A stretch of 64,000 nt of DNA from Aradus depressus (lineage: Eukaryota; Arthropoda; Insecta; Hemiptera; Aradidae), in assembly GCA_963662175.1 (NCBI GenBank), contig OY759216.1:34303087-34367086 (forward strand), written 5' to 3'. Positions 29,380-60,900 of the stretch are shown piece after piece (position 1 is the first letter of the stretch; each line of letters starts with the position of its first letter). Position numbers and translations under genes: made by a program. The notes under the pieces are model-generated. The model saw only the letters and a program-made list of their open reading frames with translations, made no database searches and was not told the DNA's origin.

Positions 29380-29389
29380 TAATTAAAAT

Positions 29390-29601
29390 AATAGGTTTTA
29401 TATTGAAGCAGCTTTTACTTTCTTACTCAATTAACAAAAAAAAGGGTCTTTTATCAAGTTTAGCCTAAAAACAGGATACTCAAGTCACTGATGATGGGAA
29501 GAAATAACCCGAAACGTTTGACCATGTAACAAAAGAAATTTATAAATAAAAATAAAAAATGGGAGTAAGAAAGTAAAAGCTGCTTCAATATAAAACCTAT
29601 T
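29390..29601 (+). mobile_element. Small inverted-repeat element carrying a hammerhead-like motif
   Basis: Bases 29390-29428 are the exact reverse complement of 29563-29601 (39 bp). Between them lies the motif at 29484-29522. A 13-base word TAATTAAAATAAT at 29380-29392 recurs with one extra A at 29635-29648, a likely target-site duplication; about 33 extra bases sit between the right inverted repeat and it. The end sequence resembles the end of the palindrome at 59707, so both belong to one family. Confidence 0.7.
29484..29522 (+). ncRNA. Small hammerhead-ribozyme-like motif, type B copy 1 (intact)
   Basis: Stem I GTCA (29484-29487) pairs with TGAC (29519-29522). Core CTGATGA (29488-29494), extra T, stem II GGG/CCC (29496-29498/29108-equivalent 29508-29510) around a 9-nt loop, core GAAA (29511-29514), self-complementary ACGT (29514-29517), predicted cleavage after T29518. 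Four perfect stem I pairs at exactly the hammerhead position make chance unlikely. Helix III would need a second RNA copy. Confidence 0.6.
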
Positions 29602-29761
29602 ATCAACTCTATGCTCCTGACACATTATTGAAGATAATTAAAATAATGGAAGTTCCAGTAGAAAGGAAATAAAAATAAATAAGATAAATTATGATTTTTT
29701 TTTTTTTTTGACTATACATATTAACCATGCATCTATAACAATGTTACTAAATAATTCACAG

Positions 29762-59665: not shown

Positions 59666-59760
59666 TTTAACAATACTGTAGATGTTGATTAGCGACTGTA
59701 GATTATAATTGTAGGAATATTGAGGGTCAGTCAAAGATGGAAAAAAAACACTATTCAGAT

Positions 59761-59797
59761 GCCAACGTTTCGATATATTTTATATCATCATCAGGGC
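59761..59797 (-). ncRNA. Small hammerhead-ribozyme-like motif, left arm of palindrome
   Basis: On the minus strand: stem I GCC, core CTGATGA, extra T, stem II GATATA/TATATC with loop AAA, core GAAA, self-complementary ACGT, cleavage base T, stem I partner GGC. It mirrors 60356-60392 exactly. Confidence 0.55.
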
Positions 59798-60355
59798 CTA
59801 CAAACATGGGGGGGAAATCAAGATTAGAATCAAAAATAAACAAAAATTGTTTTTGTTGATAAACATTACTGAACGTTAAAAATACATTATAACAAGTTAA
59901 AAATTGAAACTGACTTACTATGAATAATTACTAAACATTAAAATTAAATATGAATACATTACTAAACATAAACATTAATAATGGAAATAGACAAATAGGT
60001 GGAACATAATAAAGAGTAAACATTAAAATGACTTACTATGAATAAGCAGGATTGGGGAGAAGATATGTACACTGGATGGAGTCTTACATTCCAGCCCCAA
60101 CCCTGCTTATTCATAGTAAGTCACTTTTATGATTTACTCTTTATTATGTTCCACCTATTTGTCTATTTCCATTATTAATGTTTATGTTTAGTAATGTATT
60201 CATATTTAATTTTAATGTTTAGTAATTATTCATAGTAAGTCCGTTTCAATTTTTAACTTGTTATAATGTATTTTTAACGTTCAGTAATGTTTATCAACAA
60301 AAACAATTTTTGTTTATTTTTGATTCTAATCTTGATTTCCCCCCCATGTTTGTAG

Positions 60356-60392
60356 GCCCTGATGATGATATAAAATATATCGAAACGTTGGC
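60356..60392 (+). ncRNA. Small hammerhead-ribozyme-like motif, right arm of palindrome
   Basis: Stem I GCC (60356-60358) pairs with GGC (60390-60392). Core CTGATGA (60359-60365), extra T, stem II 60367-60372/60376-60381 (six pairs), GAAA (60382-60385), ACGT (60385-60388), predicted cleavage after T60389. All hammerhead core positions are present; helix III would require pairing with another copy. Confidence 0.58.
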
Positions 60393-60763
60393 ATCTGAAT
60401 AGTGTTTTTTTTTTCATCTTTGACTGACCCTCAATATTCCTACAATTTAACAATACTGTTTATTTGGACGAGCCAAATTCACGCTATGCGCAAATATATA
60501 AAAGAAAGATTTAAAGTACGAAGTACTGGTAAAGTCTCAGTTTGAGTCGCCTCTCAGGTATTGATGCACCTAGACTTGAAGAGTGCAGGCCCGCACTAGG
60601 CTTCCATAGTGATTTTTACTCTGCAAAAAAGCCCAGTTCATCGTGGATTTTGTGTTTCCTGACAAACTAGGGCGGCGTCAACACCTCCTTCCCGCCCTAA
60701 CATGAAGACGTTTAACCGAACAATAAGAGAAAAAAAATACCTATATAAATACATATAATTTAT

Positions 60764-60900
60764 GTGGTTGGTAGCGTGCTTCCCTATGGAGCTCAAGATC
60801 GCGGGTTCGAAACCCAGCGAGGCAATTAGATTTTTTATCTGAGAGGCGAAAAATATTGAGCACGCCGTCCTTCGGATAGGATGTTAAGCGATGTTCCCGA
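60764..60900 (+). mobile_element. tRNA-derived SINE, 5' part
   Basis: GGTTGGTAGCGTGCTT, B box GCGGGTTCGAAACCCAG, TTATCTGAGAGGCGAAAAAT, GCACGCCGTCCTTCGGATAG; it ends after AAGCGATGTTCCCGA. The very start of the A box is degraded. Confidence 0.85.

What the first reader, a model, noticed from the sequence alone, without database searches (positions are those of the whole stretch)
59666..60459. About 350-bp-arm near-palindrome with a ribozyme motif in each arm
Two nearly identical inverted arms, a 37-bp centre, a 14-bp flanking direct repeat and opposed hammerhead motifs. A transcript through the arms would be a long hairpin in which the motifs lie opposite each other. It shares end sequence (TATAATTGTAGGAATATTGA versus TGATAATAGGTTTTATATTG) and the one-sided extension with the element at 29390, so they form one undescribed-looking family.
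Basis: partly seen in the sequence, partly recalled or inferred. Interest (0 to 1): 0.88.

Follow-up and report, generated by a model that had tools for sequence, protein, structure and literature searches.

The report
Palindromic Penelope-like retrotransposon insertion
The long palindrome is one shortened, gene-less copy of a jumping gene of the known Penelope-like kind, and its relatives in the same genome suggest that such copies form when both cut DNA strands are extended from two start points on the element's RNA.

Summary
The palindrome is real: two arms of about 350 bp inside a 14-bp target-site duplication (TSD), one hammerhead motif per arm. It is not a new kind of element. It is a 5'-truncated insertion of a Penelope-like element (PLE): inverted pseudo-LTRs, a one-sided tail of 27-29 nt, a TSD and minimal hammerheads. 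Longer copies continue into an ORF end with a GIY-YIG endonuclease (PF01541 just above Pfam's cut-off). The unnamed host genome (698 Mb) holds 1,035 tail junctions. The 29390 element belongs to a second PLE family with the same plan.

The relatives show a rule: 39 of 40 two-arm insertions (26 of 27 in family A, 13 of 13 in family B) have exactly one tail. Inner ends of the two arms are uncorrelated, yet arms of one locus share rare variants. This fits reverse transcription primed from both cut strands at two start sites on one RNA source, better than the published self-priming idea; 6 of 27 near-perfect palindromes leave fold-back possible for a minority. PLE inverted pseudo-LTRs, tails and hammerheads are in print; I did not find the near-strict one-tail rule in the papers I could read. 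No full-length element was examined.

The parts
59666..59679 (.). left target-site duplication, TTTAACAATACTGT
   Evidence: identical 14 nt at 60446-60459; 0 of 200 shuffles as long
59680..59706 (-). tail, present on this arm only (27 nt; 29 if the GT before it is counted)
   Evidence: tail junction occurs 1,035 times in the genome, reversed control 0; tail-less arms start at template 27-30 in 21 of 26
59707..60093 (-). tail arm: pseudo-LTR, 5'-truncated at template position about 416
   Evidence: blastn to templates T44 and T22
59764..59794 (-). minimal hammerhead motif of the left arm; base before the predicted cut at 59764
   Evidence: motif scan; no Rfam call
60058..60094 (.). 37-nt centre: mostly inner end of the tail arm beyond the reach of the other arm
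60095..60447 (+). tail-less arm: inverted pseudo-LTR, template 380 to 28; its last two bases overlap the TSD
60359..60389 (+). minimal hammerhead motif of the right arm; base before the predicted cut at 60389
60446..60459 (.). right target-site duplication
29380..29392 (.). second-family element: left TSD, TAATTAAAATAAT (repeated at 29635-29647)
   Evidence: p 0.000 of 500 shuffles
29388..29428 (-). second-family element: tail-less arm, 41 nt (its first bases overlap the TSD)
29431..29636 (+). second-family element: long arm with tail (template 206 to 1); the tail is about 29604-29636
29488..29518 (+). minimal hammerhead motif of the second family; base before the predicted cut at 29518

Best explanation
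The feature is a short, ORF-less insertion of a Penelope-like retroelement. Shown: two inverted arms, each a separately 5'-truncated copy of the element's 3' end; a tail on one arm; a TSD; the same plan in many other copies; a GIY-YIG ORF end upstream of the pseudo-LTR in longer copies. Inferred: the element's enzyme cut both target strands about 12 nt apart. Each free 3' end primed reverse transcription inside one RNA, or two RNAs of one source: one at a distal start site (tail arm), the other some 27-30 nt further upstream in the RNA (tail-less arm). The two cDNAs ran inward, stopped at unrelated points and were joined, which leaves two head-to-head copies of the 3' end. The hammerheads face each other because each copy brings one; no role at this locus is shown.
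For: GIY-YIG, PF01541 at 23.3 bits (cut-off 22.6) in an open frame of L022, with tblastn matches of the same family in the bodies of 9 of the 40 loci. Exactly one tail in 26 of 27 family-A two-arm loci (25 by mapping, L047 by eye) and 13 of 13 in family B. Tail-less arms start at template 27-30 in 21 of 26 (range 23-37). TSD of 10-14 nt in 20 of 27 family-A two-arm loci and of 11-14 nt in 10 of 13 of family B. Inner ends uncorrelated (Spearman -0.23, p=0.25, n=27); own arms closer than permuted pairs (0.0282 against 0.0430 +- 0.0022, p<=0.00005, 22 loci); 19 shared rare variants against a mean of 1.5, maximum 5. No two of the 100 exact tail junctions that one search lists lie within 5 kb. In vitro the Anolis PLE cuts and extends both strands from two internal start sites that bound the tail (PMC11167929, main text).
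Against: 6 of 27 two-arm loci have inner ends within 13 nt of each other (one, L022, because the alignment breaks there), which fold-back would also give. L027 has two tails and inverted flanks. The second piece of L045 starts at template 405, not at a usual start site, and 5 single-arm loci show a TSD-like repeat at the inner end, so pairing is not obligatory. In 7 of 27 loci the partner arm ranks below 20th in likeness, and only 9 of 27 have any shared rare variant, the window copy none. The Anolis study saw no difference of start site between strands. The reverse transcriptase was not examined. Loci were ranked or chosen by palindromic form.
Confidence: 0.75

Rival explanations
1. Self-priming: a first cDNA, or an antisense template, folds back on itself and is copied, which makes the inverted arm. 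Proposed for Penelope elements of the rotifer Adineta vaga.
For: PMC3846280, discussion. 6 of 27 loci have inner ends within 13 nt. L027 has two tails and a 200-nt inverted repeat of its flanks (98%) abutting them, as fold-back copying would leave. Arms of one locus share variants, as this also predicts.
Against: Copying a folded cDNA to its end would put the tail and the flank into the second arm; 39 of 40 two-arm insertions have one tail, and most have a direct TSD, not an inverted flank. Inner ends differ by more than 50 nt in 20 of 27.
Confidence: 0.12
2. Two separate insertions, or a later inverted duplication or gene conversion, made the arms alike.
For: Gene conversion between arms would also raise their likeness. 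L024 and L032 share TSD and similar flanks, so duplication of sites occurs.
Against: One TSD encloses both arms in most two-arm loci and only one arm has the tail; both recur in two families.
Confidence: 0.05
3. A terminal-inverted-repeat DNA transposon or MITE.
For: Inverted arms inside a direct repeat.
Against: One terminus has a tail that the other lacks; TSD length varies; arms are truncated at many points; longer copies carry a GIY-YIG ORF end.
Confidence: 0.01
4. Assembly or library artefact.
For: Long inverted repeats are a known artefact class (general knowledge, no call).
Against: TSD, one-sided tail, 5 differences between arms, same plan at many loci.
Confidence: 0.01

Closest known systems
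Canonical Penelope-like elements with GIY-YIG endonuclease (Penelope of Drosophila virilis, Poseidon of Anolis, Pen families of Adineta vaga)
   Same: GIY-YIG ORF end, inverted pseudo-LTRs, 30-40 bp tail on one of them, TSD around 9-14 nt, 5' truncation, minimal hammerhead (PMC3846280 abstract and two sections; PMC11167929 abstract and main text; PMC6155905, PMC7761336 and PMC8969392 passages)
   Different: The copies here are mostly very short, often two pseudo-LTR pieces with little or no body; tail use is one per two-arm insertion in 39 of 40; the reverse transcriptase was not seen
Metazoan non-LTR retrozymes
   Same: Small, without ORF, hammerhead-bearing; PLEs are named as candidates for moving them (PMC7229834 and PMC7761336, passages)
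   Different: Retrozymes are described as direct tandem repeats with mostly canonical type I hammerheads; this is an inverted pair with a minimal hammerhead and is joined to a PLE ORF end in longer copies
Twin priming of LINE-1 (recalled, from no call)
   Same: Second target strand primes on the same RNA and gives an inverted piece
   Different: Here both primers use fixed start sites near the RNA 3' region, so both outer ends are the same element end

Membership tests
Penelope-like element (canonical) | C-terminal GIY-YIG endonuclease in the ORF | tested here: met
   Met in longer copies, not in the window copy, which has no body: PF01541 23.3 bits, cut-off 22.6, E 7.9e-05; same-family tblastn matches in 9 of 40 loci
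Penelope-like element (canonical) | Telomerase-like reverse transcriptase in the same ORF | not tested
   No full-length copy reached; protein and family searches of the genome did not complete
Penelope-like element (canonical) | Pseudo-LTRs, often inverted | tested here: met
   27 of 40 loci have a second inverted arm that begins at the outer end
Penelope-like element (canonical) | Optional tail of 30-40 bp on one pseudo-LTR | tested here: met
   27-29 nt in family A, about 31-33 in family B; one per two-arm insertion in 39 of 40
Penelope-like element (canonical) | TSD of variable length | tested here: met
   10-14 nt in 20 of 27 family-A and 11-14 nt in 10 of 13 family-B loci; shorter or none found in the rest
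Penelope-like element (canonical) | Minimal type I hammerhead in the pseudo-LTR | tested here: inconclusive
   Core and both stems present in three families with different, still paired stems (read by eye), but one extra nucleotide before stem II and no Rfam call; cleavage not testable
Metazoan non-LTR retrozyme | Direct tandem repeats with canonical type I hammerheads, without linked ORF | tested here: not met
   Inverted arms, minimal hammerhead, ORF end in longer copies
TIR DNA transposon / MITE | Inverted repeats that reach both termini, TSD of fixed length | tested here: not met
   One terminus has a tail that the other lacks; TSD length varies

The most novel reading that the evidence does not exclude
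PLE insertion is a coupled two-primer reaction: each paired insertion in vivo uses one distal and one proximal start site, about 29 nt apart, on one RNA molecule, perhaps because the first reverse transcriptase of a dimer occupies or uses up the proximal site and the second must start at the distal one. The palindromes are signatures of paired target-primed reverse transcription, and those whose tail arm ends at template 416-419 are full copies of a short RNA that starts at a promoter inside the pseudo-LTR.
Probability: 0.4. Interest if true: 0.65.

Novelty: new member of a known kind. Interest (0 to 1): 0.42.

Why it matters
How Penelope-like elements insert, and why their pseudo-LTRs are so often inverted with a tail on one side, is open: a 2013 paper proposed self-priming, and a 2024 in vitro study found two start sites and extension of both strands. 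This genome has about a thousand tail-bearing copies of one family, so the one-tail rule, the uncorrelated inner ends and the common source of the two arms can be tested on large numbers. The single palindrome in the window is otherwise an ordinary short copy.

Tried and rejected
Rfam at gathering score and at E<=10: no hammerhead family; the miRNA-like rows reflect the inverted repeat and lie below their gathering scores. My first hammerhead regex printed nothing, being too strict; the second found three. ARAGORN: no tRNA in the window. No ORF of 150 aa or more in the window. Protein homologues: 10 candidates, none with E<=0.001. Solved structures: none with E<=1. A full-length autonomous copy: not reached. 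A DNA search with the outer 150 bases scored 40 of 2,001 candidates over narrow regions; 3 had an inverted neighbour, starting at query 20, 30 and 23, which by position look tail-less; they are not in my counts. Papers not held: PMC4209133, PMC8557442, PMC5785218, PMC2377424, among them key PLE and PLE-hammerhead papers, which limits any statement on novelty.

Full report
Observation. The palindrome at 59666-60459 is as described: two arms of about 350 bp with 5 differences in 350 aligned columns, a 37-nt centre, a 14-nt direct repeat at both flanks, a one-sided extension at 59680-59706 and one hammerhead-like motif per arm on opposite strands.

Relatives. The window lies in a 698-Mb genome of 74 contigs. 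A search with the 766-nt element gave 119 matches from the 40 candidates scored out of 1,674. I fetched 39 loci. With the window copy that makes 40. Their plan is: host DNA - tail (AGATGTTGATTAGCGACTGTAGATT...) - pseudo-LTR - a body of up to about 1.65 kb - and, in 27 of 40, a second, inverted arm that begins at the element's outer end; many second arms are only partial. Of the 13 others, 10 have a single arm with tail and 3 a single arm without; L029 among them has two arms in direct order. Five of the 10 have a TSD-like repeat of 10-15 nt at the inner end of the single arm (L016, L018, L023, L038, L044, no shuffle control), and L045 has a second inverted piece from template 405-466 followed by an 11-nt repeat of its left flank. 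The tail junction occurs 1,035 times in the genome with up to 2 mismatches, and 0 times for the reversed control.

Identity. Where copies reach further inward, the strand on which the hammerhead is sense carries, upstream of the pseudo-LTR, an open frame that ends in a GIY-YIG domain (L022 and L044; PF01541 23.3 bits, cut-off 22.6; same-family tblastn matches in 9 of 40 loci). GIY-YIG endonuclease, inverted pseudo-LTRs, a 30-40 bp tail on one of them, a variable TSD and minimal hammerheads together describe Penelope-like elements (PMC3846280: abstract, structure section, discussion; PMC11167929: abstract and main text; passages only of PMC6155905, PMC7761336, PMC7229834, PMC8969392 and PMC12910113). 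The reverse transcriptase was not examined.

The 29390 element. Same plan, different sequence: a 41-nt arm and a 206-nt arm with tail inside a 13-nt TSD. Its search gave 129 matches from 40 of 186 candidates. I fetched 12 of the listed places, picked because two arms were visible there. All 12 and the window copy have exactly one tail. L023 holds a piece of a third PLE-like family (GIY-YIG matches of 37-39% identity; another hammerhead).

Hammerheads. The three families share CTGANGA, one extra nucleotide, stem II and GAAACGTT, while stems I and II differ but stay paired: GCC/GGC and GATATA/TATATC in A; GTCA/TGAC and GGG/CCC in B; GGTC/GGCC (with one G-U) and GGAAA/TTTCC in the third (pairing read by eye, no formal covariation test). 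Position 7 is T or A, once C. Single copies of A carry private changes in core or stem. Whether published PLE hammerheads have the extra nucleotide I could not check. In a transcript through both arms the two ribozyme strands would pair with each other, so activity there seems unlikely (inference).

How it forms. Published ideas are self-priming on an antisense template (PMC3846280) and, for the Anolis element in vitro, cutting and extension of both target strands with two adjacent internal start sites that bound the tail (PMC11167929). The copies allow a test. First, exactly one tail in 26 of 27 family-A two-arm loci (25 by mapping; L047 by eye, as its tail lies beyond an unmatched stretch) and in 13 of 13 of family B. 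The exception, L027, has two tails and a 200-nt, 98% inverted repeat of its flanks abutting them. Among the 100 exact tail junctions that one search lists (a capped list of 1,035, not chosen by palindromic form) no two lie within 5 kb; 23 of the 37 tails found in held loci are exact. Second, tail-less arms start at template 27-30 in 21 of 26, range 23-37. Third, inner ends are uncorrelated (Spearman -0.23, p=0.25, n=27; ends taken from the longest BLAST piece, so approximate). Fourth, the arms of one locus resemble each other more than arms of different loci (0.0282 against 0.0430, p<=0.00005, 22 loci) and share 19 rare variants against a mean of 1.5. By BLAST ends, 15 of 25 joints have 0-3 bases of gap or overlap, 8 have 6-39 unassigned bases, and L032 and L034 have 130 and 1,040; L022 and L041 could not be read so.

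Results against. In 6 of 27 loci the inner ends lie within 13 nt of each other, which fold-back would also give; one of these, L022, is an alignment break inside a larger palindrome. The partner arm is the closest one in 8 of 27 loci but ranks below 20th in 7, and 18 of 27, the window copy included, have no shared rare variant. L045 and the single-arm loci show that the second arm may start elsewhere or be missing. The Anolis study saw no start-site difference between strands. Fold-back would copy tail and flank into the second arm; only L027 looks like that. Paired target-primed synthesis from two start sites explains the rest best. The order of steps, the use of one RNA molecule and the cause of the coupling are inferred.

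A recurrent inner end. Eight of 38 tail arms stop at template 416-419 (L010, L012, L015, L017, L019, L024, L025 and the window copy, whose last bases are ambiguous). The sense sequence there is TTTCATTGCAATG, which looks like an initiator (recalled consensus), so these may be full copies of a short RNA that starts inside the pseudo-LTR. CATTGCAATG is also a perfect palindrome, so a stop or annealing effect is not excluded.

Limits. Family-A loci were ranked by likeness to a palindromic query, which favours two-arm and near-perfect copies; family-B loci were chosen as two-armed. Two-tailed copies would not have scored worse, tail-less ones slightly worse. Gene conversion between arms could raise their likeness. 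L024 and L032 share a TSD and similar flanks and may not be independent. No tool names the host.

Verdict. A real and well-read observation: an ordinary insertion of a known kind of element, in families that I did not find described. The near-strict one-tail rule is the part worth a specialist's time; it was not stated in what I read. Literature searches were made, and key PLE papers were not held.

Noticed in passing
L027 (G000:C12:14455500-14462573): Both arms have a tail, and 200 nt of flank on either side are inverted repeats of each other (98%) abutting the tails; looks like fold-back or a later inverted duplication.
   Followed up: partly
pseudo-LTR template position 416-419 (window about 60093): Eight of 38 tail arms stop at this point, where the sense strand reads TTTCATTGCAATG; possible transcription start.
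   Followed up: partly
L024 and L032: Same TSD (ACAAAATTTAGT) and similar flanks on different contigs, but arms of different reach: a duplicated site, or two insertions at one spot of another repeat.
   Followed up: no
L023, near position 600-900: Piece of a third PLE-like family with its own hammerhead.
   Followed up: no
left side of tails in the held loci: Many targets read AATGT or GT just before the tail, sometimes as part of the TSD and sometimes not; this suggests primer-template pairing at the distal start site (read by eye).
   Followed up: no
window about 60763-60826: Looks like a tRNA-derived SINE head (GGGTTCGAAACCC box), by eye only; ARAGORN calls no tRNA in the window.
   Followed up: partly
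L016, oriented body 1808-2372: Open frame of 188 aa that by eye looks like a LINE-type reverse transcriptase piece next to the PLE copy.
   Followed up: no
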